From a virus: a stretch of DNA of 64,000 nt. The stretch is from positions 1 to 64,000 of IMG/VR virus record IMGVR_UViG_3300028837_001734; one strand, written 5' to 3'. The notes below the pieces were generated by a model. It made no database searches and was not told the origin of the DNA. It saw only the letters and a program-made list of their open reading frames with translations. The position numbers and the translations under genes are program-made. Position 1 is the stretch's first letter; each line of letters begins with the position of its first letter. Shown here in pieces: positions 1 through 41,184 of the stretch.

Positions 1-1
1 G

Positions 2-664
2 TTCTATATGGATAGGGCAGAGACAATCATACGCAGACGCCACATTTACGAAGCAGATCTAGTATGCACAACAGACGGAGGTTGCGACGACCAATGGAAA
101 CAACAGTTCGGTGTTGACCATATAACCCTGAGACAAGGATTGCATGCGCCAGACCGCGTCTGGGTCGAGCCATATATAAGCAATTTCGACATTATTTTCG
201 TAGGCAGTGTGTACAACGATTATAGGAAACGGTTAGTATCATTCTTGTCATCAATATATGGTAATCGTTTCCGCGTTTTTGGTGGATCGGAGAAGTCACA
301 AGACCAGGTCCGTGGATTGGATCTCAATAAGTTGGTCCAATCTGTAAAGATTGTTGTTGGAGACTCCTTGCCTGGACACAACTATTGGAGCAACCGATTG
401 TACGAAATACGCGGTCGCGGCGGATTCTTATTGCATCCAGAAACATTTGGGATGGACGAGGAATTTGAGATAGGAAAGGAATTGGTAGTGTTCCCTAGAC
501 ATGCTATGGATGGACTAAGACAGCTTATAGATTATTATGTAGACCATGATGATGAACGAGAACAGATAAGAAGATGTGGCTTCGAAAGATGTCCGACTTA
601 TGATGATAGAGTGGCGGTATTATTATCCCACATCAACGATGTATTGGAGGCGAAACAATCATGA
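2..664 (+). CDS. CgeB-like glycosyltransferase, 5' end outside window
   Basis: The frame is open to the left edge, and the first ATG in the window is at 8, so the gene probably begins upstream. The visible 218 residues look like the C-terminal half of a GT-B glycosyltransferase of the CgeB/YkvP (Glyco_trans_1_2) kind: a Rossmann-like strand FDIIFVGSVY, then a donor-site segment with SNRLYEIRGRGGFLLH and the downstream ELVVF. The acceptor is unknown. Its stop overlaps the next start (ATGA), so it is the first visible member of a glycosyltransferase operon. Confidence 0.65.
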   Translation, partial: FYMDRAETIIRRRHIYEADLVCTTDGGCDDQWKQQFGVDHITLRQGLHAPDRVWVEPYISNFDIIFVGSVYNDYRKRLVSFLSSIYGNRFRVFGGSEKSQDQVRGLDLNKLVQSVKIVVGDSLPGHNYWSNRLYEIRGRGGFLLHPETFGMDEEFEIGKELVVFPRHAMDGLRQLIDYYVDHDDEREQIRRCGFERCPTYDDRVAVLLSHINDVLEAKQS

Positions 665-1593
665 AAATACGTACGACAATGATTCACCAAGCTATACCTC
701 TGAGAATGGATGCACTACTTAGAACCCTGATCCGAAGAGGACACACAATCGCTAACGATGATACCGCGGATGTCTGGTTTGTTGATTGTATATGGCCACA
801 TAAGATATATCCTGCGACCATTGATCAGATGCTGTCTTTCGGTGGAAAAATAGTTCTGGTATCTTTGGGTGACCTAAATATATTCAATATTGATGGGCTA
901 CCAGACGAACTTATACAAAAAGTATCGGCGTTCGCAAAAATACAATGGGACAATGACACATCTATATACGACAGTAGAATTATTGGAAAAAGTGTCACAA
1001 TACACCCATTCCTGGTTAGCCATCTACCACAACCTACGACCAAGAAGCATAGAGTATGTTTTCTTGGGTTACCAACAGGTGCTGAGAATGCTGAAGATAA
1101 TTTGAGAATACGTGCATGCCGGATCCTCAAGAAACAGCCATGGTTCATTGGTGGTATCGTAGGCCAAGAAGGTGGAGCAACACCCAGAGATATCAGCGGC
1201 ATAGAAGTCGGTGAACTATCTAGGAATATGTATCTTAGGTCCATCAATAGATCTCTTATCTCACTATGCATGCCTGGCAATAGTCCATTGACATATAGGT
1301 TATTTGAGAGCCTGGGAGTATGTTCTGCTGTCATTTCATGTCGTTTAGATTCAGTCAGATGGTTAAACAGGATGAATCCAAATGAACATTATCTATTAGT
1401 AAAAGATGATCTATCGGATCTATTGGAAGTATGTGAAAGAGCAGTAACAGAACCACAAGATACAGTCGAAATAGCCAAAACCGGCCATGATTTATACCAA
1501 CAATATTATTCTATCATGCCCGATCGTGGTTTGACAGATCATATGTCATATGATATATGTTGTCAATTCGGTGAGTGTGGTATACATTTCTAG
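661..1593 (+). CDS. putative GT-B/exostosin-like glycosyltransferase
   Basis: A protein of 310 residues. The C-terminal half carries PLTYRLFESLGVCSAVISCR, which resembles the donor-binding segment of exostosin/CgeB-type glycosyltransferases (P-x-xYR-x-FE...G..aVi). The N-terminal half is a plausible Rossmann domain. It overlaps the upstream gene by ATGA and is followed 10 nt later by a damaged paralogue. The enzymatic assignment is inference from motif resemblance; the family membership of the pair is clear from their mutual similarity. Confidence 0.5.
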   Translation: MKIRTTMIHQAIPLRMDALLRTLIRRGHTIANDDTADVWFVDCIWPHKIYPATIDQMLSFGGKIVLVSLGDLNIFNIDGLPDELIQKVSAFAKIQWDNDTSIYDSRIIGKSVTIHPFLVSHLPQPTTKKHRVCFLGLPTGAENAEDNLRIRACRILKKQPWFIGGIVGQEGGATPRDISGIEVGELSRNMYLRSINRSLISLCMPGNSPLTYRLFESLGVCSAVISCRLDSVRWLNRMNPNEHYLLVKDDLSDLLEVCERAVTEPQDTVEIAKTGHDLYQQYYSIMPDRGLTDHMSYDICCQFGECGIHF

Positions 1594-1602
1594 GAGATAA
1601 GG

Positions 1603-2386
1603 ATGAAAATAGGAATGCATATGGCTCATCCAGCTACTACCGATAGGTTAACAGAGCTGATCAGAACATTGGTCAAATATGATCATCATGTTGTGCCGTA
1701 CGATGGTCAAGAAGTGGATATTTTGATCGCTGGTGCATTACCACCGCATGAACATACTGACCGTCATATAGATAAAATGTCATCACACAATGGCCCACTT
1801 TTACTGTCTAGCCTCAATCAATATTCACCCAATTAAGTCAAAGAAAAAACATATCAGTTTTCATGGATTGGCTACTGGACCATTCGACAACAACATAAGA
1901 ATAATGGTGTGTAGGAAATTAAGGTCACAACCGTGGTTCAGAGGTGGGATAGTAGGTGATGCTCCTGGAGCAAGGCCGAAAGATTGGGCTGATGTAGCTA
2001 CGCAGGGTTTACCACATAGCATATTCTTGAGCGCAATTAATGAATCACGTGGTGCTTTGACGCTGCCTGGATACAATCCATTAACATACAGACTGTTTGA
2101 GGCAATGGCTGCCAAATCTGTAGCCATTACGTGTCGTCTGGAAAGTATGAGATGGCTGAACCGTTTGGATCCTGATGTTCATTATGTAAAGTTCAATGAT
2201 GATTTATCGGATTTAGTGGAGAAACGTCAACGGGTTATCGACGACGAACGATATGCTTCGAAGATAGCAGCCGCAGGACACAAAATATATCAGGATTATT
2301 ACAGACTTAACGGAGATGGTACTCTGTCTGATGCTATGTGGTCCGATATCAAAGCACAATTCGAGAAAATCGGTATAACTTTGTGA
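1603..2386 (+). pseudogene. internally deleted paralogue of the 661-1593 gene
   Basis: Two overlapping frames (1603-1836 and 1790-2386) together match the 310-residue neighbour from end to end except for about 50-55 missing residues in the middle. The first frame matches the neighbour's N-terminus through LLLSSLN and stops at a TAA near 1834. The second frame picks up at INIHPIKSKKKH and keeps LTYRLFEAMAAKSVAITCR. The missing segment and the change of frame coincide at about 1810-1830, so a single deletion explains both. It has a good ribosome site (GGAGATAAGG). It could be real decay, or an assembly error at a short repeat. Confidence 0.6.
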
Positions 2387-2417
2387 ACAATAATAATTGT
2401 TTGAGGTATAATATGGT

Positions 2418-4262
2418 ATGATAGAATTTGCTCATTGTCAATGCAAAGTAAAAGTTGGTGAATTCAACATCAATAAAATCCCCCTTGATTGTCCTGCTGT
2501 CTGGAAGCTTGTCTCGTGTGGACATACTGTCGGTATATTCCAGCTTGAAAAAAAGTTGGGACAAGATTGGGCAAAGAAAGTACGTCCAGACGATCTTGAA
2601 GCATTAGCGGCATTAACAGCATTGTTGCGTCCTGGACCATTGGAAGCAGGAATGACACAGGACTACGTAGAGATCAAAGCTGGTGTCAGCAAGCCATCCT
2701 ATATCCATCAATTATTGGAGCCAATTCTGTCTCCTACCTATGGGTGTTTGGTTTACCAAGAACAAGCAATACGTATCGCAACGGACCTAGCCGGATTTAG
2801 TCCAGAAAATGCTGACGAACTACGTAAAGCTATTGGTAAGAAAAAACCAGAGTTAATGGCAAGGATAAAGAATAAGTTTATCGATGGATGCGAAAAACAC
2901 CAGAATATACCAAAGGGTATGGCTGAAGAAATTTTTGGGTGGATTGAAAAGTGTCAAAGATATAGTTTTAATAAATCTCATGCTATATGTTATGGTATGA
3001 TAGCATATCAAACAGCTTGGGTGAAATGTCATTTCCCACAAGAATTTTTTACCAGTTACCTAACTTATTCGGCTTACAAGAGGGATCCAAAAGAAGAGAT
3101 ATACAAATTAGTCCAAGACGCTAGACTATTTGGTATCAGGATTTTGCCTCCAGATATTAGAAGGAACAATATCCACTTCGCTATGGTCCCTGATCAAGAT
3201 AATGGCGTAGCTTTTGGACTGTCTCACATTCGTGGTGTGGGTCAATCTGCCATACAAAAAATTATTGCAGCAGTTTCTGATGGCCAATCTACTTCTGGTC
3301 TGGTTACATGGGGTGATTTTGTAGCTGCAGTCCCAGATTTGCACAGAAATGTTGGCATTGCATTGATCAAATCTGGTGCATGTGATTGTTATCAAATGGA
3401 ACGAGCTACGATGGTACAAGAATTGGAAGTAATTCTTGGAACGACCATACGTGATGATGATGGTAAGAAGGTGGAAGTCAAGGGACTTACGAAAAGAGAA
3501 AAAGAATATTTCTTCAGAAGGTTGTCTGATGGGTTATCGACCAGAGAAGTTCTTCTCGAAATGGGGCAAACTCCAGAAGAGAGACCAAAATCTATATCAC
3601 AGATGAAAAAATCAGAATTAGTTGTAGCAGCAAAGAATTTCCTTAATTCAATGGACACTATAGAATCAGGTATTCTTGATGATGATAGTATATTTGTCCA
3701 TACATCACAATCAGAAAAAGATGGATGGCTAGAAGACTTGTCTAAAAGAACAAAAATAAATATTGTGGCCATACTCAGAGCCAATGGCTACAAAGAGAAT
3801 ATCCAAAAGCCTCCTTGTTCGAGCGAAGCCAGACGTCAAAAGGTAATGGAAAAGGCTGATATATTAGATACTGAATTATTTGATAATAATAAAGCTAAAG
3901 CTGCGGCAGAAAAGCATTTTCTAGGTATTGCTTTATCATGTTCTGAAGCTGATGATGCAGATGATTCTAATGCTACTCATACATGTCTTGATATTGCCAG
4001 GGCTAATAATGACGAAACTATAATTACATGTGTTATAATAGACAATGTCAAACATACAAAAACAAAACGTGGGAGGAATCCTGGATCTCCTATGTGTTTT
4101 TTGACTATATCTGATTCTACATATTCTATTGATCATGCCGTAGTCTTTCCAGATACATATATGAAATTGAAGGGATTGTGTAAAGAAGATCTAATTTGTA
4201 TGGTATATGGACATAAAAAAAATGGGAGTTTTATCGTACAAGATATTCAAAAATTAATTTGA
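2418..4262 (+). CDS. dnaE: DNA polymerase III alpha (DnaE), C-terminal half only
   Basis: 614 residues that align with bacterial DnaE from just after the third catalytic aspartate onward. Visible landmarks in order are IPLDCPAVWKL, TVGIFQLEKK, LLRPGPLEAGM, YGCLVYQEQAI, LRKAIGKKKPE, YSFNKSHAICYGMIAYQTAW and ILPPDIRRN, then a C-terminal OB-fold-like region (FLTISDSTYSIDHAVVF). The PHP domain and the three palm aspartates are absent. The in-frame stop TAA lies 6 nt before the ATG, so the frame does not extend upstream. A segment around residues 340-470 is unlike standard DnaE. The missing half must be encoded elsewhere for this to be an active polymerase. Confidence 0.85.
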   Translation: MIEFAHCQCKVKVGEFNINKIPLDCPAVWKLVSCGHTVGIFQLEKKLGQDWAKKVRPDDLEALAALTALLRPGPLEAGMTQDYVEIKAGVSKPSYIHQLLEPILSPTYGCLVYQEQAIRIATDLAGFSPENADELRKAIGKKKPELMARIKNKFIDGCEKHQNIPKGMAEEIFGWIEKCQRYSFNKSHAICYGMIAYQTAWVKCHFPQEFFTSYLTYSAYKRDPKEEIYKLVQDARLFGIRILPPDIRRNNIHFAMVPDQDNGVAFGLSHIRGVGQSAIQKIIAAVSDGQSTSGLVTWGDFVAAVPDLHRNVGIALIKSGACDCYQMERATMVQELEVILGTTIRDDDGKKVEVKGLTKREKEYFFRRLSDGLSTREVLLEMGQTPEERPKSISQMKKSELVVAAKNFLNSMDTIESGILDDDSIFVHTSQSEKDGWLEDLSKRTKINIVAILRANGYKENIQKPPCSSEARRQKVMEKADILDTELFDNNKAKAAAEKHFLGIALSCSEADDADDSNATHTCLDIARANNDETIITCVIIDNVKHTKTKRGRNPGSPMCFLTISDSTYSIDHAVVFPDTYMKLKGLCKEDLICMVYGHKKNGSFIVQDIQKLI

Positions 4263-4290: not shown

Positions 4291-4328
4291 AAAAGATGAA
4301 CTATGTTTTTTAATTAAGGAGATTGGAA

Positions 4329-4751
4329 ATGGGAGCATTAGGATTTTTTGGTGTTGGTGTAGCTGTGGCTGATCCGGAATTAAAATATGTTGGTCAGTCC
4401 AATACTGCAGTTTGTACTGTTAACTTGGCTTTTAATAGATCATTTCAAGATCGTGATAAGAAATGGCAAAAGGAAACTTGTTATATGAGGGCTCAGGTGT
4501 GGGGTGCTAGAGCAGAAAAGATGTCTGAAATTGTTTCGAAAGGACAACCAGTTTACGTAACAGGTTACATTAAGCAAGAGACTTGGGAAAAGGACGACGT
4601 AAAAAGAACTAATTATAAACTTAGTATATCTGATTTTCATCCTTGTGAACGATTTACTAATGGGAAATCTACAGGCGGTGCTACAAATCAAGAGCAACAG
4701 TCCCCAACAGATATCCCACAAACGGTCCCAAATGATGATATCCCATTTTGA
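4329..4751 (+). CDS. ssb: single-stranded DNA-binding protein
   Basis: 140 residues with the bacterial SSB OB-fold: VAVADPELKY, TAVCTVNLAFNRS, the conserved W in EKMSEIVSKGQPVYVTGYI and a C-terminal acidic tip PNDDIPF that recruits replication partners in bacterial SSBs. ATG 4329 is chosen because AAGGAG (4316-4321) lies 7 nt upstream; the TTG at 4323 is too close. It lies between the DnaE fragment and the sigma-like gene, so it belongs to the replication block. Confidence 0.92.
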   Translation: MGALGFFGVGVAVADPELKYVGQSNTAVCTVNLAFNRSFQDRDKKWQKETCYMRAQVWGARAEKMSEIVSKGQPVYVTGYIKQETWEKDDVKRTNYKLSISDFHPCERFTNGKSTGGATNQEQQSPTDIPQTVPNDDIPF

Positions 4752-4760
4752 GCAACATAT

Positions 4761-5357
4761 ATGAAGAGGGATACGTCATTTGATCAATATATTCAAGCAA
4801 TGGCAGTTAGGCTATCTGGTAGATTTGATACTAGATTATCCGATACTGCCGATTATAAACAAATTGGTCATCTTAAACTTTTAGAATTACAACAATTATG
4901 GCAATTACGTAATATCAAAGGTAATTTCCGTGCGTATGCAATTAAAGCAATAGCACGAGCCATGAGAAATGAAGCCATTAAATCTATAGGAACAGTTTAT
5001 GCACCTCGTAATGTGAAAAAATTAGTAGCTAAAATTCAATTTTTATTAAATTGTGGTTTTTCTAACTCAGAAATTAAAAATAAATTAGATATATCCGATA
5101 TTAAATGGAATGAGTTACAAATTATTATTAGAGATGTTGTCTCATGGAATATATTACTCGAAGAACCATATTGTGAAACTGACCCTTATTTAGTTTTTGA
5201 CGACATAATGTCTAGTGGATTGACTGAAACAGACTGTGTGTTAATAGATGCACATCTAGAAGGCGACGTATGTTCAACGTCACTAAACCGTAAACAAAGA
5301 TGGTCTACTAGAAAAAATATGAGACCTAAGTTAATAAGGAATGGATATGGGATCTAA
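4761..5357 (+). CDS. sigma-70-like RNA polymerase sigma factor (predicted)
   Basis: 198 residues. Residues 10-75 resemble sigma region 2: Y-x-x-MAVRLSGRFD, a QIGHLKLLEL stretch, then GNFRAYAIKAIARAMRNE as in regions 2.3-2.4. The C-terminal third (LTETDCVLIDAHLEG) looks like the first helix of region 4, but the rest of that domain is degenerate. The likely role is redirecting host RNA polymerase to phage late promoters; the GTGTATAA sites on the minus strand are natural targets. It overlaps the next gene's start. Confidence 0.55.
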   Translation: MKRDTSFDQYIQAMAVRLSGRFDTRLSDTADYKQIGHLKLLELQQLWQLRNIKGNFRAYAIKAIARAMRNEAIKSIGTVYAPRNVKKLVAKIQFLLNCGFSNSEIKNKLDISDIKWNELQIIIRDVVSWNILLEEPYCETDPYLVFDDIMSSGLTETDCVLIDAHLEGDVCSTSLNRKQRWSTRKNMRPKLIRNGYGI

Positions 5358-8121
5358 TAGAAAACGCAGAATACTTTTCACTGGTGAAGCCTCATTTTTA
5401 GCTACAGGATTTAGTACTTATTGGAATGAAGTTTTACGTAGAATATATCCTACAGGTGAATTTGAAATAGCCGAATTAGGTAGTTATGCCCATGATGATG
5501 ATCCACGCTGTCAACAAGTGCCATGGAAATTTTACCCAGTAGGTCCAGCCCGTAGTGACCATGAAGCTATGCAAAGATATATGCCAGGTCCAGGCTCTAC
5601 TAATCAATTTGGTGAATGGCGTTTTAATGATATATGCTTAGATTTTCAACCAGATATTGTGTGTGGTATACGTGACTGGTGGATGGATGAGTTTATTTTA
5701 AGATCACCGTTACGACATAACTTCAAATTTATTTGGATGCCCACTATAGATGGGGAACCACAACGAGAATTATGGCTTGACTCGTATAAGCAATGCGATT
5801 ATATATTAACATATTCAGAATATGGGATGAGACTATTAAAAAAGACAGGACGTAGAGATACTCCATTAGTAACTGTCGCATCACCAGGTGCTGATTTAGA
5901 AATGTTTAAACCTGTACCCAATAAAAGAGAACACAAACAGAAAATGGGTATAGATCCTAATTCTATTATAATTGGTACAGTGATGAGAAACCAAAAAAGA
6001 AAATTATATTACGATTTAATAGAAGCATTTTCAAAATGGTTGCATCGTTCTAAAACCAAAGGTCATACAAAATTGACCAAAGAAACCTTTTTATATTTGC
6101 ATACGAGTTATCCTGATGTTGGATATGATATAGGTAAGGCTATTAGAGATTTCGGTGTAGGCAATAAAGTTATTATGACATATCTTTGTGGTAATTGTAA
6201 CACTGCATATCCAGCATTATTTTCTGGTGATATGGCTATATGTCGCAGATGTAATAAATTAGCTGCTCATCCACCTAACGCAAATCATTCATGTCCTAGG
6301 AATGTATTAGCAGATATAATGAATGCTTTTGACTTATATGTACAATATTCTATATGTTTGCATCCAGAAACTCCCATTATGACATCTAATGGATGGGAGA
6401 ATATTGGTGATATAAATGTTGGTGATCAAGTTATAGGCAAAGATGGTGAATTGCATCGTGTTTATAAAACAATGCGCAATCCGTCCAATACTTGTTATGA
6501 TGTAACAGTGAAAAGTAGGCCATGGTCTATAACAGCTACGGATAACCATCCTTGGTTAGTTGTCAGTACCGAATTCAATGCCCAAAGCACTTCTGTAACT
6601 GGTTCGAACGGAAGTATTGAAAGTATTGTCAATAGAGAACGATACCACAAAAATCGTGGAACTCAATGTCCTAAGTTAAAATTTACTTACAAAAGAACCG
6701 ATGAACTTAATCCTGGAGATTTATTAGCTAGTCGTATACCAAATGACCATCAATTTACACCGAAACATAATCTTCCATTTTTGACAGATACTAATACAGC
6801 AAATAATCCTTCATCATGGGATGAAGATATGGCGTATTATCTGGGATTATTTGCTGCAGGAGATGGTATTAATCTTGATCATATTAAAACAATAGCTCAG
6901 AGAATGGGTAATGAAGTAAGGACGAGATTGTATAATGATCGTGATGCTTTTGATGCAGATATAAATTGTAAAGAGTTCATGTGGGAATTACGAGATACTC
7001 TATATCACAAAGACAAAACTAAACAATTACCAATTGGATGCCATTTGTGGTCAAGGAAATTGCAGGAAAGATTAGTAGCAGGGTTACTTGCGGGAGATGG
7101 ATATCAAAAAAATGAACATCTTAACGTATACTGCACAACATCAATTCATATAGCTAAAATGTTGTGTCCATTACTAGAGAGACTTGGTTTGTATTATTGT
7201 TGCCATATTCAGTATCGAGATGGCAAACTTCCGATGTATCGTTTCGAAATCCGCACTGATGGACAACGTAAATCCCATGAAACATTATATCATAATGGTT
7301 TTGTTTTAACCGAAGTTGCATCCTCTAATATAAGCAATTTTGATGGTGAAGTGGTAAATATAGACGTAGAAGATGATCACCATTACGTAACACTTGAAGG
7401 ATTACAGCACAACTGTGAGGGTTGGGGTATGCCTCTCACAGAAGCTCAAGCATGCGGTGTACCAACTATGGCTGTACGATATTCTGCTATGGAAGATCAT
7501 TTACAAAATCCAACCTCCATACCAATTGAAGTAGAAAGATTTTTCTGGGAAGCCATTATCGAGACAGAACAAAAAAGAGCTTTGCCAAATAACATAGATT
7601 TTATCAACAAATTAGAACGATTCATTAAATTACCCGAAGATATTAGAATAGGGAAAACTCAACAAACACGACAATATATAGAAGAAATGGTTGAGACATA
7701 TAAGCAACCTGGGAAAATGAGACGTCGTGGTTGGGAACGTACTGCTGCAATATGGACTCAAGTAATTAGAGATTGTAACATTTCAGACCCATTAACTACA
7801 TGGCAATGTCCAACTGCTAGAATAAGAAAGCCAAATATGATACCACCCAGTAACAATATGAATAATGTGGAATTTGTAAACTGGGTAATAGGTCAGATTT
7901 GGGGTCGTAAAGATATGTTACGCACGCATTTTGCAGGTGAATGGTTAAAAGCTTTGAACAGTGGATCTAGAACCCAAGGAGACAAACGTACTCCATTCGA
8001 TAGACAACAATTGGTAAATCATTTTATGACATTAGTTAACCAGAATAACGAAATAGAACAACATAGAATAGCTTTGTTGAATGGTCCTAAAATTGAACAT
8101 ACAAATGTAACGGTGATATAA
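5347..8121 (+). CDS. GT4-type glycosyltransferase interrupted by an intein
   Basis: 924-residue precursor. The exteins form a GT-B glycosyltransferase: an N-terminal FTGEASFLATGFSTYW strand, TVMRNQKRK at the start of the second domain and the conserved donor-binding EGWGMPLTEAQACGVP. A zinc-ribbon-like insert with CGNC and CRRC pairs sits around residues 281-316. An intein (6355-7413) separates FDLYVQYSI from CEGWGMP, so the enzyme should be inactive until splicing. AAGGA at 5336-5340 fits ATG 5347 better than ATG 5341. The acceptor is unknown; virion, host envelope and modified DNA bases are all possible. Confidence 0.85.
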   Translation: MGSNRKRRILFTGEASFLATGFSTYWNEVLRRIYPTGEFEIAELGSYAHDDDPRCQQVPWKFYPVGPARSDHEAMQRYMPGPGSTNQFGEWRFNDICLDFQPDIVCGIRDWWMDEFILRSPLRHNFKFIWMPTIDGEPQRELWLDSYKQCDYILTYSEYGMRLLKKTGRRDTPLVTVASPGADLEMFKPVPNKREHKQKMGIDPNSIIIGTVMRNQKRKLYYDLIEAFSKWLHRSKTKGHTKLTKETFLYLHTSYPDVGYDIGKAIRDFGVGNKVIMTYLCGNCNTAYPALFSGDMAICRRCNKLAAHPPNANHSCPRNVLADIMNAFDLYVQYSICLHPETPIMTSNGWENIGDINVGDQVIGKDGELHRVYKTMRNPSNTCYDVTVKSRPWSITATDNHPWLVVSTEFNAQSTSVTGSNGSIESIVNRERYHKNRGTQCPKLKFTYKRTDELNPGDLLASRIPNDHQFTPKHNLPFLTDTNTANNPSSWDEDMAYYLGLFAAGDGINLDHIKTIAQRMGNEVRTRLYNDRDAFDADINCKEFMWELRDTLYHKDKTKQLPIGCHLWSRKLQERLVAGLLAGDGYQKNEHLNVYCTTSIHIAKMLCPLLERLGLYYCCHIQYRDGKLPMYRFEIRTDGQRKSHETLYHNGFVLTEVASSNISNFDGEVVNIDVEDDHHYVTLEGLQHNCEGWGMPLTEAQACGVPTMAVRYSAMEDHLQNPTSIPIEVERFFWEAIIETEQKRALPNNIDFINKLERFIKLPEDIRIGKTQQTRQYIEEMVETYKQPGKMRRRGWERTAAIWTQVIRDCNISDPLTTWQCPTARIRKPNMIPPSNNMNNVEFVNWVIGQIWGRKDMLRTHFAGEWLKALNSGSRTQGDKRTPFDRQQLVNHFMTLVNQNNEIEQHRIALLNGPKIEHTNVTVI
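6355..7413 (+). mobile_element. LAGLIDADG intein in the glycosyltransferase
   Basis: 353 residues. It starts with Cys in C-LHPETPIMTSNGW (block A) and has block B (TATDNHPWLV), two LAGLIDADG helices (AYYLGLFAAGDG at about 6832-6867 and LVAGLLAGDG at about 7074-7103) and block F/G ending VTLEGLQHN followed by Cys of the C-extein. All splicing residues (Cys1, block B His, terminal HN, Cys+1) are present, so both splicing and homing endonuclease activity look intact. Confidence 0.92.
6782..6819 (+). repeat. 38-bp exact repeat, copy 1 (inside intein)
   Basis: The 38 bases from TGACAG to CATGG are identical to 44329-44366 on the same strand. Here they encode TDTNTANNPSSW in the intein, just before the first LAGLIDADG helix. 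Confidence 0.95.
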
Positions 8122-34436: not shown

Positions 34437-34510
34437 CAGGCCGGGCAGGACTCGAACCTGCAAGCATCCTGGATCAAAACCAGACGTTCTGCCAATTGAA
34501 CTACCAGCCC
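34437..34510 (-). tRNA. tRNA-Gln (TTG)
   Basis: 74 nt cloverleaf. Acceptor GGGCTGG with CCGGCCT, anticodon stem CTGG/CCAG with loop TTTTGAT (anticodon TTG), T-arm GCAGG-TTCGAGT-CCTGC. CCA not encoded. Confidence 0.85.
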
Positions 34511-34541
34511 ACTGCAAAGTCATTTTTTATAGGATTCTAGT

Positions 34542-34799
34542 TTACTCTGCGTCTATTTTTAGACCAAGATTTCGAGCAATCTCGATAATCGCCTGACGGA
34601 AATCTTTGGTACGACCAGCCTTTATATCTTCCATGCTTTTTTCCAACAGATGTAAACTCTGTCTCATTTCTTCGTCTTGCATAAATTTCTCAAGACAATC
34701 TACACATCTGGTAGCTTCATATGGTTTTCTACCTGGACAATCAATTCCGGATCTTTTACGACATTCAAAACAAAGAATTCCAGTTTCTTTCTCTATCAT
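34542..34799 (-). CDS. small zinc-finger-like protein
   Basis: 85 residues. Two cysteine pairs in the first half (CFEC ... CVDC, with an additional C at 21) suggest a zinc ribbon. The C-terminal half is a helix. Start overlaps the upstream stop by ATGA-type coupling. Function unknown. Confidence 0.55.
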   Translation of the reverse strand: MIEKETGILCFECRKRSGIDCPGRKPYEATRCVDCLEKFMQDEEMRQSLHLLEKSMEDIKAGRTKDFRQAIIEIARNLGLKIDAE

Positions 34800-35023
34800 A
34801 AGATTTCCAATTCCTCTAATTCTATTTTATCTAGGGCCAACTGTGTATTGATAACTATTGCCATAGCCTGTATTGCTCCTCTGTCTATATCAATATTAAT
34901 ATCGCCATCGACCAATCTACGAGCCTGGTCACTCATATTTGCACCAATACCCCAAGCGTCTTTCAGTTTCTTTAAGTAATCATCCCTATGTTTTATTAAC
35001 AGTACCTTATTTTTTATATCCAT
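34796..35023 (-). CDS. hypothetical protein
   Basis: 75 residues, mostly helical, no motif recognised. Ribosome site AGGATAACACA. Coupled by overlap to the zinc-finger-like gene. Confidence 0.5.
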   Translation of the reverse strand: MDIKNKVLLIKHRDDYLKKLKDAWGIGANMSDQARRLVDGDINIDIDRGAIQAMAIVINTQLALDKIELEELEIL

Positions 35024-35041
35024 TGTGTTATCCTATTTTAA

Positions 35042-35112
35042 TACCAACGACAGGAATCGAACCTGTACTTCCTGGTCCACAGCCAAGCGTTCTTCCGTTA
35101 AACTACGTCGGC
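35042..35112 (-). tRNA. tRNA-His (GTG)
   Basis: 71 nt. Acceptor GCCGACG with CGTTGGT, anticodon stem CTTGG/CCAGG with loop CTGTGGA (anticodon GTG), T-arm ACAGG-TTCGATT-CCTGT. The base before position 1 is A and the discriminator is A, so the usual G-1:C73 identity pair of bacterial tRNA-His is not encoded. Confidence 0.8.
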
Positions 35113-35334
35113 TTCTGTTATCAAAGCTTCTAATGTCTCAAGAGTAGCACGAGAAACAACAACCATTGGGCCTTTCCCATGAGTATAATCAGCGGCAGTC
35201 AATAAACCACGAACTACGTCTCTCATAGCTTCTGCAGATTCGTGCATTTTACAAAATGTCAAGAAATCAAAACCATCACTGGTAAAACCACAGTGACATC
35301 CACAATCTTTTTCGTGTGTAATTTCAATGCTCAT
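35098..35334 (-). CDS. hypothetical protein overlapping tRNA-His
   Basis: 78 residues with a CGCHC cluster near the N-terminus and later a single FCKMHES element, possibly metal binding. ATG 35334 has a GGAAGAGG ribosome site; the longer frame would need TTG. The stop codon lies inside the 5' part of tRNA-His. No family recognised. Confidence 0.5.
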   Translation of the reverse strand: MSIEITHEKDCGCHCGFTSDGFDFLTFCKMHESAEAMRDVVRGLLTAADYTHGKGPMVVVSRATLETLEALITEADVV

Positions 35335-35575
35335 CACCGCCTCTTCCAACTACTAATACATCATTTTTACCTAGCGAACAAATAGAGTGAGCACCGTTTT
35401 CATGTAGTGTCCACAAATGAATCACCCTATTATTAGTAGGACATGGTATAGTAAACCAACTCCTACCATTAAGGATCGCATGTGTCTTTTCTAAACATTG
35501 CAATCTCTTTATCTGGAATTCCTGATCTTTGATGATTTTTTGTGCCCATTTAGGTAGTTTTTTTACATCGTGCAT
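35324..35575 (-). CDS. hypothetical protein
   Basis: 83 residues, starting in a TGATG overlap with the preceding gene's stop. Basic helical N-terminus (LPKWAQKIIKDQEFQIKRLQ) and a beta-rich end. This N-terminal helix pattern is common in small phage accessory proteins. Function unknown. Confidence 0.55.
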   Translation of the reverse strand: MHDVKKLPKWAQKIIKDQEFQIKRLQCLEKTHAILNGRSWFTIPCPTNNRVIHLWTLHENGAHSICSLGKNDVLVVGRGGDEH

Positions 35576-36051
35576 CAGTCGCTCACACAAAATTCTGGAC
35601 AATCAAATCTCATTTCCAAACCATACATCTTCATGTGTAGCTTACCTCTGACACCACGTTCTAGTAATACTTCTATGAAGCTGTCATCACCATCTGGGTA
35701 CACCATAGAATCATACATAAGATTAGCGGCTAGCCTGACTTCAGCATGATGATCGAAACAAATAATCTTTGGTCTTCGTCCGTACTTTTCATGGAACTTT
35801 AATATCATCCTCTGTATTGTATGTCTGATGTTGGCACGACCGAATCTACGGAGCAATGATTCATCTTCTCTCATTACCTGAGCAGCTATATGTTGTTGAC
35901 GATCAAAATTATCCATAGCCTTTTGCATATCTTGTCCTACTGCCTCCCAATCCTTATAAGCCAATGGACAAATATCATACACGCATTCACATTCTTTACC
36001 ACAATCTTCACATTGCTGAAATTCTCGTTTTCCTAATTCATTTTCGCACAT
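35575..36051 (-). CDS. hypothetical Cys-rich accessory protein
   Basis: 158 residues. The N-terminal 30 residues hold CEDC, CEC and a further C, a possible zinc site; the rest is alpha/beta. Good ribosome site AAGGAG. Function unknown. Confidence 0.55.
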   Translation of the reverse strand: MCENELGKREFQQCEDCGKECECVYDICPLAYKDWEAVGQDMQKAMDNFDRQQHIAAQVMREDESLLRRFGRANIRHTIQRMILKFHEKYGRRPKIICFDHHAEVRLAANLMYDSMVYPDGDDSFIEVLLERGVRGKLHMKMYGLEMRFDCPEFCVSD

Positions 36052-36055
36052 AAAT

Positions 36056-36103
36056 CTACTCCTTAGGAAACTTCCGTGGTTTCGGACAATTTCTAATTTT
36101 CAT
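36056..36103 (-). CDS. possible 15-residue basic peptide
   Basis: ATG 36103 follows GGGGAAAAGA at 3-4 nt and reads MKIRNCPKPRKFPKE. It overlaps the preceding stop. Too short to prove; its end supplies the AAGGAG of the next gene, so it may be chance. Confidence 0.2.
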   Translation of the reverse strand: MKIRNCPKPRKFPKE

Positions 36104-36191
36104 CTTCTTTTCCCCAGTAAAAAGAGTCAAGATAGGCATCGATAATCCATACTAAAACTAATGGTCCAAAACCAATAACCCATACCATCAT
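36093..36191 (-). CDS. small single-pass membrane protein
   Basis: 32 residues: a hydrophobic segment VWVIGFGPLVLVWII followed by an acidic tail. Its ATG overlaps the TGA of the upstream gene, implying translational coupling. Confidence 0.45.
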   Translation of the reverse strand: MMVWVIGFGPLVLVWIIDAYLDSFYWGKEDEN

Positions 36192-36481
36192 TCTGTAACT
36201 CTACTAATACCATCCTTAGTTTTTATCTTAGCAACTCTAAATCCTAAAATCCTATCATCTTGTTCGTTCATGAGCATCTGGATAACATTTTCCCTATCAC
36301 TAACAAGACCATTCAATAAGCCTATTAACCTTAATCTACCATCCATCGTAACTTGAACTGTAGGATGATCAATCATTTCTTGATCTGCGTGAATAGAAAT
36401 ATTAAGCAACATCTTATTAACAGTTTCTTCATCCTGATCTAATGCACTATTCAGAAAAGCTACCACTTGATTCATTGTCAT
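36188..36481 (-). CDS. hypothetical protein
   Basis: 97 residues, acidic helical protein. ATG 36481 has GGGAG nine bases upstream and is preferred to the longer frame from 36511. No family recognised. Confidence 0.5.
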   Translation of the reverse strand: MTMNQVVAFLNSALDQDEETVNKMLLNISIHADQEMIDHPTVQVTMDGRLRLIGLLNGLVSDRENVIQMLMNEQDDRILGFRVAKIKTKDGISRVTE

Positions 36482-36507
36482 TTTAAGAACTCCCAATAAT
36501 TTCAGTT

Positions 36508-36681
36508 TCAATAAAGCGTTTCCTCTTCTAATCCTATATCTAAAGCTATCCTTCTAGCTAATAAATCAGCACCTTTACAACCTCCTTCTATAATTATAGC
36601 ATCTTTCGGAAGTCTACGCAACCTATCTTCGATGGTTTTTATGTTTAACCACCTTCTGTCACCACAAACAATTACTTTCAT
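36508..36681 (-). CDS. DUF2493/SLOG-like protein, short form
   Basis: 57 residues matching the N-terminal half of DUF2493 (YspA-type, SLOG nucleotide-binding fold): VIVCGDRRWLN, then IIIEGGCKGADLLARRIA. Family members are normally about 130 residues with a following DWxxxGxxAGPxRN block, absent here. The reading frame extends upstream only through adapter sequence (36695-36770), so its true start is ATG 36681. Confidence 0.65.
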   Translation of the reverse strand: MKVIVCGDRRWLNIKTIEDRLRRLPKDAIIIEGGCKGADLLARRIALDIGLEEETLY

Positions 36682-36694
36682 ATTAATTCCACAC

Positions 36695-36770
36695 CTGTCT
36701 CTTATACACATCTCCGAGCCCACGAGACTAGGCATGATCTCGTATGCCGTCTTCTGCTTGAAAAAAAAAA
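36695..36770. other. Illumina Nextera/P7 adapter and poly-A, not phage DNA
   Basis: CTGTCTCTTATACACATCT at 36695-36713 is the Nextera mosaic end. It is followed by the rest of the read-2 adapter, an 8-base index TAGGCATG (36729-36736), the P7 sequence to CTTCTGCTTG at 36760 and ten A residues. The junction joins two truncated genes. Sequence on either side may not be contiguous in the real genome. Confidence 0.98.
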
Positions 36771-37054
36771 GGTACACAATCTCCACATCTAGGTCTCAAC
36801 GAATCATCCTTATCTATCCCTTTGCAAAAACAACCAAGCACTTTGCCTTTCAATTTTGCTATTCGTGCAGCAAATTCTGGATCAGTCCGCAATCTATCAT
36901 AAAAATGTATATAATATAAATCTAGAACCTCGTCACGATTACCATTTCGTCCAATTATAAATGGATTCCCAAAATAACCATCCTGTCCATTACCAGCTCT
37001 CCCTATATACACATCATATTTATCATGTTTAATATTTACAACAGTAGTTTTCAT
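36771..37054 (-). CDS. DUF4326 protein, 3' end lost at the adapter junction
   Basis: About 94 genuine residues. VVNIKHDKYDVYIGRAGNG, GYFGNPFIIGRNGNRDEV and KLKGKVLGCFCKG match the DUF4326 family (small phage and bacterial proteins of unknown function). The reading frame runs into adapter after CGDCVP, so the stop is artificial. The gene is coupled to 37051-37272. Confidence 0.75.
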
Positions 37055-37272
37055 GTATCAATCCTCTCATGAATATCAAATGTTATACCATCATAAGTGG
37101 CGCTGTAAATGCCATAGTGAGGACCAACCTTATCTACGCATACCTTCAAAACTTGTATAGCTTCCTTCAACGAATCACAAGTACCATAAAAAACAATCTT
37201 TTCTGGACCAGGTAATTTTCCATCATTACGGTTGACCATTACAAGATATACCTTTTGTGTCGTGCTATTCAT
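37051..37272 (-). CDS. hypothetical protein
   Basis: 73 residues, beta-strand VYLVMVNR at the start, then a helix. Start chosen at ATG 37272 with GGAG seven bases upstream; ATG 37275 is adjacent. Overlaps both neighbours. Unknown function. Confidence 0.5.
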   Translation of the reverse strand: MNSTTQKVYLVMVNRNDGKLPGPEKIVFYGTCDSLKEAIQVLKVCVDKVGPHYGIYSATYDGITFDIHERIDT

Positions 37273-37519
37273 CATTATACTCCACATCAAGTTCCAGGAT
37301 ATCATCTGCTATGTGAGCCAAAAAATCAGGAGCATCTGTATTAGGGCCATCTCTCTGTACGACAGACTCACCATCAAATGCTTCATGATGGAAAAACCAC
37401 TTAACAACAGCTTCAAAAAGATCTTCTCTGGTCTCAGGATCATCTTTATAAGTTACTTCACCGAAATCTGTTTTTTTACGACGAATCACTATATTACTCC
37501 TATATTCAGAAATTTTCAC
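37265..37519 (-). CDS. hypothetical acidic protein
   Basis: 84 residues, acidic in the second half (DDILELDVEYNDE). No motif recognised. Overlaps neighbours on both sides. Confidence 0.5.
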   Translation of the reverse strand: MKISEYRSNIVIRRKKTDFGEVTYKDDPETREDLFEAVVKWFFHHEAFDGESVVQRDGPNTDAPDFLAHIADDILELDVEYNDE

Positions 37520-37718
37520 ATCTATCTTGCCATATTATATTACGAACTACATCTTTTAATTGTGACATAACCAATATACGATGTTGTCTCATAGAATTAT
37601 TTAGATCCTCCTCTAATCCCATCAATAGTCCGTGTTCATTTCTGAGATATTCTGCGATATATGATACAACTACCGATACTTCTTCTTCCGAAGGGTTTTC
37701 TGGTCCCATACAAGGCAT
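37506..37718 (-). CDS. hypothetical protein
   Basis: 70 residues, helical. ATG 37718 follows GGAG at nine bases, and the upstream TTG would lie against the T-run of the terminator at 37734. First gene after that terminator, so expression may need read-through or its own weak promoter. Confidence 0.5.
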   Translation of the reverse strand: MPCMGPENPSEEEVSVVVSYIAEYLRNEHGLLMGLEEDLNNSMRQHRILVMSQLKDVVRNIIWQDRCENF

Positions 37719-37733
37719 AGTCCGATACTCCAA

Positions 37734-37760
37734 TAAAAAAGCCCGCAGTTTCCTACGGGC
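37734..37760 (-). terminator. strong intrinsic terminator
   Basis: Perfect eight-pair stem GCCCGTAG / CTGCGGGC with GAAA tetraloop followed by TTTTTTATT on the minus strand. Confidence 0.93.
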
Positions 37761-37790
37761 GAGATCTACTCCAATTTTCTGGAACTAGAC

Positions 37791-37853
37791 CTAACCCGCA
37801 TCACCTCTCGGTGCGGCATTTGGATTAGGTTGATTAAGCTGATGCTTATACAT
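37791..37853 (-). CDS. 20-residue peptide in its own transcription unit
   Basis: ATG 37853 with GGAGGT seven bases upstream reads MYKHQLNQPNPNAAPRGDAG and stops at 37791. The frame lies between promoter P6 (37874-37884) and the strong terminator at 37734-37760. The coding part also folds: CCTAA pairs with TTAGG and CCGCACC pairs across GAGA with GGTGATGCGG. It may therefore be a peptide gene, a structured RNA or both. No membrane segment. Confidence 0.5.
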   Translation of the reverse strand: MYKHQLNQPNPNAAPRGDAG

Positions 37854-37873
37854 TCCAGAAACCTCCAAAAATG

Positions 37874-37884
37874 TTATACACAAA
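37874..37884 (-). promoter_or_regulatory. late promoter motif GTGTATAAC (P6)
   Basis: Minus-strand CTTTGTGTATAACATTTT, directly upstream of GGAGGT and the 20-residue frame; overlaps the end of the small membrane protein gene. Confidence 0.65.
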
Positions 37885-37885
37885 G

Positions 37886-38005
37886 TTAAGAATTTCTATT
37901 GCGAATTACTGATGTTAAAACAAAAATAATTCCACAAGCAAAACCAATACCACATAATACAACAGATGTAGTAGAAAAACCACAACAAGCAAGTAAACTA
38001 TACAT
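37886..38005 (-). CDS. small membrane peptide (39 residues)
   Basis: GGGAGGTAAA precedes ATG 38005. The peptide has a hydrophobic, Cys-containing segment (SVVLCGIGFACGIIFVL) and ends in RNRNS, a single-pass inner membrane layout. Adjacent to another membrane peptide. Confidence 0.5.
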   Translation of the reverse strand: MYSLLACCGFSTTSVVLCGIGFACGIIFVLTSVIRNRNS

Positions 38006-38014
38006 TTTACCTCC

Positions 38015-38122
38015 CTAGAATATCAATAATCCAACTAGAACCAAAATGATAATTAGTAGACCAACAACAACTGGCCAACCAGCAGCAATCATAAATACTA
38101 TATTATCCCACAAGTCATACAT
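38015..38122 (-). CDS. small membrane peptide (35 residues)
   Basis: Begins MYDLWDNIVFMIAAGWPVVV and continues with a strongly hydrophobic run GLLIIILVLVGLLIF to the stop. AGGTGA lies upstream. Holin-like or accessory membrane function is possible, but nothing proves it. Confidence 0.5.
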   Translation of the reverse strand: MYDLWDNIVFMIAAGWPVVVGLLIIILVLVGLLIF

Positions 38123-38132
38123 ATAACATCAC

Positions 38133-39152
38133 CTAAAATACTACGATCTCTGTAGATCCAAGCAAGAACTGAATCAATCTACCCATCCCCAAACCAAAAC
38201 CACTTCTAATTAAAGTATTATGACTACGGCATCCTCTTTTGTCATCTGAGGAAAGGTTTAAATAAGATACAAAGGGAGCCCAACTAGCTTGCTCGACTTT
38301 TGTATTAACTACACCACCATTAGTTTGATCAGCACGAATTTTCGTCATCTGCTGAAACATTAAACTTTCTCTTAATTTAATACTAAGAGTTCTATAATCT
38401 TCTTCCCGTCTCGATCCGCCGAAAGTTTCACCAGCCCAAGGTAAAAGCAAATCAACACAATCGACAGTAAATCTATTTTCATTATATTCCTCAATAGGCA
38501 TATTTGCTTTTAATGGTTCACGACAAGTACGATACATATTGAAAAACTTGATGGATTCTGGATAATGCGTGACCTGAACAGGACCTTCAAATAGAACACA
38601 TATCATTTCTTCAACATTAGAAGTAAAATCATCACCCCAATTGATAGAAACACCACGGTTACTCAACATTTCAACTACTTCTGTATAAGTGATGATCTTA
38701 GCTGGACTATCCAAAAAACCCTCAAGTCTCCGTCGATGTTCCGTACTAATACAATCTGATTGTAAAGCCGTACTAATCGCAGCATTTAGAATTTTCTGTT
38801 GGAATAAAAGTAAAGCCTTTAAGTCAAAATTTAAAGATTCAAATTCAAGCAATGCAAATTCAGCCAGATGACGTCCATCACCAGCCTTAGGTTCATTTCG
38901 ATAACTACGTCCCAAAGTCCAGACACCAGGAAGACCATGTTGTAAAATTTCTGCTTCCATCAATAACTGATCTGTTTGTGATAGATATGCTAATTGTGGA
39001 GTATTCTGCAAAATAAAAGCTGTTGGTACATTTTCACACGCCCCAGTACCACCAGTAATTTTATTATAATATGATTCCACCACATCGCTATCATACATAA
39101 CAGCTCTAATCTTATCTAATACGTCAGCCTTAAGTTTAATCAATTCCTTCAT
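38133..39152 (-). CDS. AsnRS/AspRS-like class II enzyme (archaeal asparagine synthetase A type)
   Basis: 339 residues corresponding to the class IIb catalytic core alone: AFILQNTPQLAYLSQTDQLL; motif 2 in TLGRSYRNEP and HLAEFALLEFE; and motif 3 GFGLGMGRLIQFLLG. The N-terminal anticodon-binding OB domain of AspRS/AsnRS is missing. In archaea such truncated proteins make asparagine from aspartate and ammonia using ATP. Whether this one makes asparagine or modifies something else is inference. Confidence 0.75.
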   Translation of the reverse strand: MKELIKLKADVLDKIRAVMYDSDVVESYYNKITGGTGACENVPTAFILQNTPQLAYLSQTDQLLMEAEILQHGLPGVWTLGRSYRNEPKAGDGRHLAEFALLEFESLNFDLKALLLFQQKILNAAISTALQSDCISTEHRRRLEGFLDSPAKIITYTEVVEMLSNRGVSINWGDDFTSNVEEMICVLFEGPVQVTHYPESIKFFNMYRTCREPLKANMPIEEYNENRFTVDCVDLLLPWAGETFGGSRREEDYRTLSIKLRESLMFQQMTKIRADQTNGGVVNTKVEQASWAPFVSYLNLSSDDKRGCRSHNTLIRSGFGLGMGRLIQFLLGSTEIVVF

Positions 39153-39461
39153 TTATTTATCCTTTTTCATGTGTTTAAATTGCTCAATTTGCTTGAGTCT
39201 ATCCTCAGCCTGTTTCCTCGACGAATAACATCCCAACTTCTTTCCGGTCTTGCTATAAATACAAAATGGTTTACTATCAGGACCATCTTTACGAATTACA
39301 GCATCAGTTTTTAAAGCTTCTAATAATTCTTCATTCCAATCTGTCACTGAACGTTCACCCCTTTTCAAAATTTCTTCTTTATCAAGATAATATTTATATG
39401 GCGTATTTCCTTTTCTCCTGCGTTTTCTGCGTGTTTGACTTTTATTAGTGCGAGTACTCAT
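39153..39461 (-). CDS. basic protein with a phage-common C-terminal motif
   Basis: 102 residues. Very basic N-terminus (NKSQTRRKRRRKG); C-terminal FCIYSKTGKKLGCYSSRKQA followed by EDRLKQIEQF is a motif repeatedly seen in phage proteins. Start placed at ATG 39461. Adjacent to the AsnA-like gene with no gap. Role unknown. Confidence 0.55.
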   Translation of the reverse strand: MSTRTNKSQTRRKRRRKGNTPYKYYLDKEEILKRGERSVTDWNEELLEALKTDAVIRKDGPDSKPFCIYSKTGKKLGCYSSRKQAEDRLKQIEQFKHMKKDK

Positions 39462-39499
39462 GTGATACCAACTCAGTCCAACAGCAGCCACTATACGAA

Positions 39500-39724
39500 T
39501 TAATAGGACACCTCAGCAGTCTTGGCCCAATCATCCCATTCATCAATATCTACTTGTTTTCGAATCGGTTCAGGTTCTACTATAGTACCTAATGGCTGAT
39601 CAACTATTACTTCATAAAATACTTGACTCATTGAAACATCTAAAACAAATCTACGTTCGATACCCCATTCGGAGTCATTCCTGACGAATTTAGAATACGT
39701 ACAACCCATTTCGGGTGTTAACAT
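39500..39724 (-). CDS. hypothetical protein
   Basis: 74 residues, acidic, beta-rich (RRFVLDVSMSQVFYEVIVDQ). Starts in a TAATG overlap with the membrane protein gene upstream. Confidence 0.5.
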   Translation of the reverse strand: MLTPEMGCTYSKFVRNDSEWGIERRFVLDVSMSQVFYEVIVDQPLGTIVEPEPIRKQVDIDEWDDWAKTAEVSY

Positions 39725-39954
39725 TATTCCAAAGCCCCTTCCCATCCGTGTAAAAGCTTATCATTATTATCAAAAAATAATTCACCACATACATCCATAT
39801 TTCCTGAACATGCAGATAAATCCCACCCATATATATTAGTTAATAAATCACAGCCAGGTAGAATAAATAAACATAACAATATAATTATCCATATTGGGAC
39901 CATAAATTTAATAACCGTTTGCCAAGAATTATTTTGATAACGATAGTCTCTCAT
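39724..39954 (-). CDS. membrane or lipoprotein-like protein
   Basis: 76 residues. One hydrophobic segment (about 18-36, MVPIWIIILLCLFILPGC) ends in a lipobox-like LPGC; later residues contain three more cysteines. Start at ATG 39954 after GGGGAT. It could be an envelope lipoprotein (spanin-like) or a single-pass membrane protein. Confidence 0.5.
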   Translation of the reverse strand: MRDYRYQNNSWQTVIKFMVPIWIIILLCLFILPGCDLLTNIYGWDLSACSGNMDVCGELFFDNNDKLLHGWEGALE

Positions 39955-39956
39955 AA

Positions 39957-40163
39957 TTATCCCCATCCACTACCAGATGCTCTTTTCCGAGCACTAGGAG
40001 GTTTCTTTAAAGGAGGAAAACGTCTATAAATTTCACGTGCTTTCAATTTATCAAGTTCTCTATGCCATGCTTCTTCTCTTGCTGGAGTCCAGGCATTAGG
40101 ACTACCAATAGAATCTAAAATAGTTTCATCAGGTTTTGACAATCCATCCTTGTTTCTACTCAT
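39957..40163 (-). CDS. small basic protein
   Basis: 68 residues with a helical REEAWHRELDKLKAREIYRR and a Pro/Lys/Arg-rich tail. The frame can be extended upstream only through tRNA-Thr, so the start is ATG 40163. Confidence 0.5.
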   Translation of the reverse strand: MSRNKDGLSKPDETILDSIGSPNAWTPAREEAWHRELDKLKAREIYRRFPPLKKPPSARKRASGSGWG

Positions 40164-40184
40164 CTCATAATTTTCCTTCCTAAG

Positions 40185-40258
40185 AGCCGCGAGAGGGATT
40201 CGAACCCTCGACATTTGGTTTACAAAACCAACGCTCTGTCCAACTGAGCTATCACGGC
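40185..40258 (-). tRNA. tRNA-Thr (TGT)
   Basis: 74 nt cloverleaf. Acceptor GCCGTGA with TCGCGGC, anticodon stem TTGGT/ACCAA with loop TTTGTAA (anticodon TGT), T-arm GAGGG-TTCGAAT-CCCTC. Confidence 0.92.
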
Positions 40259-40476
40259 TGCTGAGATAAAAGGCGATCCACAACTACTTTCATAGTAGGA
40301 TCTAAATCTGAATAATAGCAACCTTTTACCCATCTGCCATGAACAAAAGCGGCATAGCATACAGTAGCTACTTCTATATCTTTAGGTGTTTTACCGTCAA
40401 CATCTACATCAAGCCAATAATTAGAAGTAACACTATTAGTAGTTTTGTTACAATTCATACATCTAGCCAGTGGCAT
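40252..40476 (-). CDS. hypothetical protein ending in tRNA-Thr
   Basis: 74 residues with an N-terminal CMNC pair and later isolated cysteines. The TGA stop lies within the tRNA acceptor stem (GCCGTGA). Ribosome site AGTAGG. Unknown function. Confidence 0.5.
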   Translation of the reverse strand: MPLARCMNCNKTTNSVTSNYWLDVDVDGKTPKDIEVATVCYAAFVHGRWVKGCYYSDLDPTMKVVVDRLLSQQP

Positions 40477-40482
40477 ATTAAC

Positions 40483-41007: not shown

Positions 41008-41046
41008 TAGTATACCTCTCTAATTCAACAGATCCTATCAAAACAC

Positions 41047-41150
41047 TGACGAGTATCGGATTCGAACCAACAGTCCTCTTTAATTTCCCCTAGGTCCAAC
41101 ACAATCGGGGTCGGTGGTATAGGACACCCCACCAAGCTCACTCCAGTGAT
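41047..41150 (-). other. tRNA-like element with unresolved fold
   Basis: A clear T-arm-like segment GTTGG-TTCGAAT-CCGAT lies at the 3' side, and the ends pair (CACTG with CAGTG, GAGT with ACTC around a 2-nt bulge). A normal D-arm and seven-base anticodon loop cannot be drawn. It may be a degenerate class II tRNA with a long variable arm or another structured RNA. Confidence 0.3.
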
Positions 41151-41184
41151 ACACTCCCTAACAACTAGTGCTTTCCTCGTCCAA

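What the first reader, a model, noticed from the sequence alone, without database searches (positions are those of the whole stretch)
2418..4262. DnaE reduced to its C-terminal half, without catalytic aspartates
The frame begins just after the position of the third palm aspartate and continues to the OB domain. An in-frame stop six bases before the ATG rules out a simple upstream extension, and glycosyltransferase genes lie upstream. Either the polymerase is encoded in two separate pieces that associate, or a catalytically empty half has been kept for another role. Residues 1-12 (MIEFAHCQCKVK) do not look like DnaE.
Basis: partly seen in the sequence, partly recalled or inferred. Interest (0 to 1): 0.6.

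Follow-up and report, generated by a model that had tools for sequence, protein, structure and literature searches.

The report
Phage DNA polymerase split into two
This gene is the back half of a bacterial-type replicative DNA polymerase (DnaE); in its phage relatives the front half, with the catalytic residues, is a separate gene, so the enzyme very probably works as two proteins held together, an arrangement shared by one large group of uncultivated phages.

Summary
ORF 2418-4262 encodes DnaE fingers, HhH and OB domains only, with an in-frame stop at 2409. It is neither an assembly error nor an empty relic. Fifteen close viral relatives carry the same C-half (55-70% identity, including the odd leader). 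Every one also carries a separate N-half (PHP domain plus palm, all three catalytic Asp), usually 5-12 kb upstream on the same strand behind a glycosylation cassette. The window's own record starts 2.4 kb upstream, so its N-half is probably off the contig. The halves abut: PHROG 405 positions 41-616 and 617-1067; E. coli alpha about 574/584. Neither end has intein sequence. Both halves are under strong purifying selection and diverge in step (r = 0.93).

A wider search gave 75 further loci, all split at the same junction, usually with a DnaQ-like exonuclease gene between the halves; they form one clade (100/100). Cultured phages P1201 and phiT1 are split at the same joint but lie elsewhere in the tree (p-AU 6e-94), so this joint was cut at least three times. 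Non-covalent assembly is inferred, not shown. I found no published description of this clade. Rated a new variant of a known kind.

The parts
2418..4262 (+). dnaE-C: C-terminal subunit of the split DnaE (614 aa; fingers, HhH, OB)
   Evidence: Pfam PF17657, PF14579; PHROG 405 positions 619-1055; 15 relatives, 12 aligned over essentially the full length; AF2 model pLDDT 91.6
2409..2411 (+). in-frame TAA two codons before the ATG; in-frame stops within 9 codons upstream of the start also in the close relatives
   Evidence: sequence
2418..2456 (+). conserved N-terminal leader MIxFxxCxCxVxxG; CxC at residues 7 and 9, co-occurring with Cys25 (58 of 58 leader-bearing C-halves have Cys25)
   Evidence: ordered in the model (block pLDDT 92)
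2457..2900 (+). fingers domain (residues 14-161)
   Evidence: PF17657
3132..3410 (+). helix-hairpin-helix domain (residues 239-331)
   Evidence: PF14579
4017..4253 (+). OB-like domain (about residues 534-612)
   Evidence: strand pattern of the AF2 model; a homologous member hits PF01336 weakly
2385..2412 (+). promoter-like GAACA-(15 bp)-GGTATAAT ending 5 bp before the ATG; GGTATAAT recurs just before the C-half start in most close relatives
   Evidence: function not tested
1..2386 (+). distal end of the glycosylation cassette that separates dnaE-N from dnaE-C in relatives; a gene like 661-1593 also stands just upstream of dnaE-C in G002, G007 and G014
4323..4751 (+). single-stranded DNA-binding protein; an SSB-like gene follows dnaE-C in most close relatives
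   Evidence: PF00436 E 2.3e-21

Best explanation
The gene encodes the C-terminal subunit of a two-gene family C replicative DNA polymerase. The partner, DnaE-N, carries the PHP domain and the palm with the three catalytic aspartates, and is encoded upstream (probably just beyond this record's left end). DnaE-C supplies the fingers that hold template and incoming nucleotide, the HhH DNA-binding region and the OB domain. The two proteins most likely dock at the palm-fingers boundary to form one non-covalent polymerase. The chain was cut between E. coli alpha residues about 574 and 584, a natural domain joint, with essentially no domain sequence lost. The ordered leader with CxC plus Cys25 probably rebuilds or clamps that joint, possibly by binding metal. 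Shown: two conserved, complementary genes; intact catalytic residues in the N-halves; purifying selection; no intein. Inferred: assembly, activity, and the role of the leader.
For: All 15 close relatives carry both halves, one fingers gene each and no second DnaE, and no PolA or PolB was found in the 10 records searched, window's included. N-halves keep PDIDxD and KFD(F/L)LG. The halves tile PHROG 405 without gap or overlap, 41-616 and 617-1067, and E. coli alpha 5-574 and 584-903. 140 of 140 readable N-half ORFs in the wider set stop 19-47 aa after the third-Asp motif. All 75 wider C-half loci are standalone with N-half sequence upstream. Synonymous sites are saturated (pS 0.72-0.94) against pN 0.10-0.28; N versus C distances r = 0.93. 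The C-half folds with high confidence on its own alignment and matches Pol III alpha, E. coli 37% identity and 3.4 A over 328 columns.
Against: The N-half was not seen in the window's own record, which is a fragment. No physical interaction or activity was tested; the structure tool folds single chains only. Most records are incomplete, so a further polymerase elsewhere cannot be wholly excluded.
Confidence: 0.88

Rival explanations
1. The two halves are joined covalently after all, by an unrecognised protein trans-splicing element or by splicing or bypass at the RNA level across the cassette.
For: This phage group is rich in inteins: within the halves of some relatives and in the window's glycosyltransferase. 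Cyanobacterial DnaE is a known split-intein protein.
Against: The C-half starts about 13 residues before fingers homology, too short for an IntC; N-half tails are 19-47 aa with no intein motif. Rfam finds no intron in 7 junction-region loci or in the window. Start codons are separate and conserved, and in sister phages a whole exonuclease gene sits between the halves.
Confidence: 0.04
2. The catalytically empty half is kept for a role of its own, for example as DNA-binding scaffold or replisome decoy, independent of an N-half.
For: The window record has no N-half; the C-half alone keeps DNA-binding domains.
Against: The N-half is always present in relatives and diverges in step with the C-half. 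The fingers are strongly conserved, and no other DNA polymerase was found in these records.
Confidence: 0.04
3. In this particular phage the C-half works with an N-half supplied in trans (host DnaE or a co-infecting phage) rather than one of its own.
For: No N-half in the 90 kb record.
Against: Synteny: the gene next to dnaE-C resembles the one in relatives whose N-half lies 10-12 kb further upstream, beyond this record's left end.
Confidence: 0.03
4. Assembly error, or a recent pseudogene truncated at about position 2400.
For: The record is a metagenomic fragment.
Against: The same start, leader and upstream stop recur in independent contigs; nonsynonymous change is strongly constrained.
Confidence: 0.01

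Closest known systems
Bacterial DnaE / Pol III alpha (E. coli, Taq, M. tuberculosis)
   Same: Same domains in the same order when the two proteins are read end to end; all three palm aspartates; PHP domain in the N-half
   Different: Two genes instead of one; extra CxC leader; most close relatives carry an insert of about 110 aa before PDIDTD
Cyanobacterial split DnaE with split intein (Caspi et al. 2003, cited in PMC3919608)
   Same: DnaE encoded by two separate genes
   Different: No intein halves here, so no trans-splicing expected; different ends
Corynebacterium phage P1201 gp59/gp58 and Rossellomorea phage phiT1 gp20/gp18
   Same: DnaE cut at the same palm-fingers joint, no intein seen
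   Different: Split not shared by descent: P1201 groups with an intact relative and a single split clade is rejected; no CxC leader; the records annotate them only as two polymerase ORFs
Split minimal Pol III alpha of group 2.2 jumbo phages (Iyer et al. 2021, PMC7824862)
   Same: Phage family C polymerase core as two proteins from separate genes, proposed to reconstitute
   Different: That version has only the core subdomains, no other Pol III domains, and accompanies a PolB; here complete DnaE domains, and no PolB or PolA found
Genes-in-pieces in phages (T4-like gene 43 split, Aeh1 nrdA; own knowledge)
   Same: Replication gene broken into separately translated, associating parts in a background rich in mobile elements
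   Different: Different enzyme family; the separator here is a glycosylation cassette or a DnaQ-like exonuclease gene

Membership tests
Family C DNA polymerase (DnaE type), as a two-gene unit | Palm with DxD and a third Asp (E. coli D401, D403, D555) | tested here: met
   PDIDxD and KFD(F/L)LG in the N-halves of relatives; the window's own N-half was not observed
Family C DNA polymerase (DnaE type), as a two-gene unit | Fingers, HhH and OB domains in DnaE order | tested here: met
Family C DNA polymerase (DnaE type), as a two-gene unit | N-terminal PHP domain | tested here: met
   PF02811 in all 15 relatives; ligand positions HHDHEHCDH in the near clade, matching the five His, three Asp/Glu and one Cys of M. 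tuberculosis DnaE1 (PMC5636811)
Family C DNA polymerase (DnaE type), as a two-gene unit | DNA polymerase activity of the assembled halves | not testable with these tools
   needs biochemistry
Split-intein DnaE (cyanobacterial type) | IntN at the end of the N-half and IntC at the start of the C-half | tested here: not met
   N-half tails and C-half leaders show no intein
Minimal split Pol III of group 2.2 jumbo phages | Lacks other Pol III domains and co-occurs with a family B polymerase | tested here: not met
   PHP present; no PF00136 in 10 records
Intron-interrupted gene | Group I or II intron between the parts | tested here: not met
   No Rfam hit in 7 junction-region loci; window hits are only tmRNA and tRNAs

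The most novel reading that the evidence does not exclude
The split is functional rather than a tolerated accident: DnaE-N and DnaE-C are separately controlled subunits whose docking is switched by the three-Cys leader (metal or redox) and, in the sister phages, by the proofreading exonuclease made between them, giving a replicase whose assembly or proofreading can be regulated.
Probability: 0.12. Interest if true: 0.8.

Novelty: new variant of a known kind. Interest (0 to 1): 0.52.

Why it matters
Family C polymerases are the main bacterial replicases and are almost always one chain. This marks the palm-fingers joint as a place where the enzyme tolerates being two proteins. It offers a natural two-part DnaE for biochemistry and shows why annotation pipelines may miss or mislabel these polymerases. 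The sister clade's order dnaE-N, exonuclease, dnaE-C, together with the absence of a detectable DnaQ and a canonical nine-ligand PHP in most near-clade phages, gives a testable case of proofreading moving between PHP and DnaQ.

Tried and rejected
First AF2 run with 9 sequences failed (pLDDT 53.8); repeated with 67 sequences. Split intein rejected (no motifs at the junction). Intron rejected (Rfam). Pseudogene or assembly artefact rejected. Pseudomonas phage PA5 (569 aa in BFVD) looked like a split case, but PB1, taken from memory to be of the same genus, has one intact ORF of about 1035 aa. Bacillus phage vB_BpsS-140 and Microbacterium phage Haunter are broken at a different place, between PHP and palm. 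The ORF between the N-half pieces in G012 looked HNH-like by eye but has no Pfam match, so this is not claimed. The phmmer query for the N-half was shifted by 6 residues; only the mapped E. coli residues are used. A first tree lost seven intact sequences to a text pattern and was replaced. A joint fold of both halves was not possible: the tool takes single native chains.

Full report
Observation. Window 2418-4262 encodes 614 aa. The reading frame has TAA at 2409-2411 and no start between it and the ATG at 2418. Pfam finds the DnaE fingers domain (residues 14-161, E 9.7e-48) and HHH_6 (239-331), and nothing of PHP or palm. phmmer aligns residues 16-336 with E. coli alpha 584/585-903 at E 2e-61.

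Where is the other half? The window belongs to a 90,160-bp virus record (G000) that begins at window base 1. It has no PHP or palm match. A search of IMG/VR with the protein found 15 contigs with relatives at 55-70% identity. Twelve align over the whole length or all but residue 1, and the leader recurs in all 15 ORFs. All 15 contigs also hold PF07733 (palm) and PF02811 (PHP) in a separate gene (in one contig, G012, in two genes), and one fingers gene, interrupted by an intein in three contigs. In the contigs examined the N-half lies upstream on the same strand. The distance is 5.0 kb (G004), 5.1 (G008), 6.8 (G010), 7.1 (G013), 7.8 (G012), 8.3 (G006), 8.5 (G001), 10.1 (G007), 10.6 (G002), 11.8 (G009) and 12.3 (G014). 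In G011 the halves lie near opposite ends of a linear record, about 17 kb apart if the genome is circularly permuted. The intervening genes look like sugar and glycosyltransferase functions. The gene just before dnaE-C in G002, G007 and G014 resembles window 661-1593, so the window's own dnaE-N would lie beyond the record's left end. That last step is inference.

The two halves are complementary. N-halves keep PDIDxD and KFD(F/L)LG and end soon after, mostly in an acidic tail. The G001 N-half maps to E. coli alpha 5-574 (the query numbering there is shifted by 6) and the window C-half to 584-903. Against PHROG 405 (1190 positions, a phage DNA polymerase family) the sister-clade halves cover 41-616 and 617-1067, and the window C-half 619-1055. 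No intein sequence is present at either end. Synonymous differences are saturated (pS 0.72-0.94) while pN is 0.10-0.28, and pairwise N and C distances over 8 phages correlate at r = 0.93. PolA and PolB were not found in 10 records, nor a beta clamp in 11.

Wider distribution. All have a standalone C-half, and all have N-half sequence upstream on the same strand. In 62 of 71 measured cases the gap is 600-1100 bp (median 872). In 64 loci an ORF with the AHDALxDV motif lies next to dnaE-C, its stop within -30 to +10 bases of the C-half start in 58. Three such ORFs tested are RNase_T / DnaQ-like exonucleases. A profile search with N-halves brought the readable N-half ORFs to 140 (some contigs counted twice); every one stops 19-47 aa after the KFD motif. 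Caveat: these searches use split sequences as queries and keep the best 80 hits, so they sample this clade and do not show that intact close relatives are absent everywhere.

One old split in this clade, and others elsewhere. On the fingers-HhH region the environmental split sequences form one group (100/100). The cultured Corynebacterium phage P1201 (gp59 ends ...LKLDCLGLKTMTIISDTIKSVNEGGKSDIKPTDDV, gp58 begins VTLSLQTMYDLPYDDEE) is cut at the same joint but pairs with intact Gordonia phage Dalilpop (100/95). Rossellomorea phage phiT1 (gp20 ends ...VKFDLLGLKTLKVIQNSVDQINQGVAV, gp18 begins MFDILDIPLDD) falls with intact sequences (96/82). One clade of all splits is rejected, p-AU 6e-94. So the palm-fingers joint was cut at least three times, under this model and sampling.

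The leader. The first 13 residues have no counterpart in bacterial DnaE but are conserved: CxC occurs in 58 of 67 C-halves, and all 58 have Cys at window residue 25, whereas of the nine without CxC six have Asp there. The AF2 model of the window protein with 67 sequences is confident (pLDDT 91.6, pTM 0.83), leader included, and matches Pol III alpha chains (E 3e-23 to 1e-15), with 3.4 A over 328 columns at 37% identity to E. coli alpha. A metal or redox clamp is plausible but untested.

Proofreading. Near-clade N-halves carry HHDHEHCDH at the nine PHP ligand positions, the composition reported for the active PHP exonuclease of M. tuberculosis DnaE1 (PMC5636811). Most far-clade N-halves have His in place of the Cys and usually a DnaQ-like gene between the halves. 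DnaQ-like RNase_T was found in only 3 of the 10 near-clade records (G007, G009, G015), away from dnaE. This suggests, but does not show, a shift of proofreading between PHP and DnaQ.

Literature. The search of open full text found no description of this clade. Iyer et al. 2021 (PMC7824862) describe a different minimal split Pol III in jumbo phages that also carry PolB. The phage polymerase survey PMC11348598 does not mention split PolC/DnaE in the passages shown. Timinskas et al. (PMC3919608) note only the cyanobacterial intein splits and some fragmented sequences. Subscription papers were not searchable.

Mechanism. Best supported: two subunits, palm-side and fingers-side, assemble non-covalently into a DnaE. 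Genes, catalytic residues, complementarity, selection and fold are shown; assembly and activity are inferred. The separators (glycosylation cassette, exonuclease gene), together with the inteins inside the halves of some relatives and a possible further cut in G012, suggest that dnaE in these phages is a frequent target of insertion.

Noticed in passing
L065:3759-6723 (contig G012): The N-half is itself in two pieces (456 aa PHP piece, then a 219-aa unassigned ORF, then a 312 aa palm piece), with overlapping gene ends, which would make a three-piece DnaE; the contig ends inside dnaE-C.
   Followed up: partly
L008, L010, L013 (C-half); G010 and G013 N-halves: Inteins (some with LAGLIDADG) inserted inside the DnaE halves of several relatives, in the fingers and in the PHP domain.
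   Followed up: partly
window 5341-8121: Glycosyltransferase ORF with an apparent intein (Hom_end_hint and Hint matches below the curated cut-offs; starts near CLHPETPIMT, ends ...LEGLQHN/CEGWG).
   Followed up: no
window 45334-45680 (-): A phage-encoded tmRNA (Rfam RF00023, 141 bits) plus four tRNA genes at 34437-41255.
   Followed up: no
window 2385-2412 and the starts of C-halves in L001-L015: GAACA-(about 15-18 bp)-GGTATAAT stands a few bases before the dnaE-C ATG in the window and, with variations, in most close relatives; promoter or ribosome-binding role unknown.
   Followed up: partly
near-clade N-halves, between ERFYN and PDIDTD (e.g. L034): Insert of about 110 aa just before the first catalytic aspartates, absent in G011 and in bacterial DnaE.
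   Followed up: no
L233 (Microbacterium phage Haunter), L144 (Bacillus phage vB_BpsS-140): DnaE broken at a second place, between the PHP part and the palm, in cultured phages; L144 lacks annotation over the gene.
   Followed up: partly
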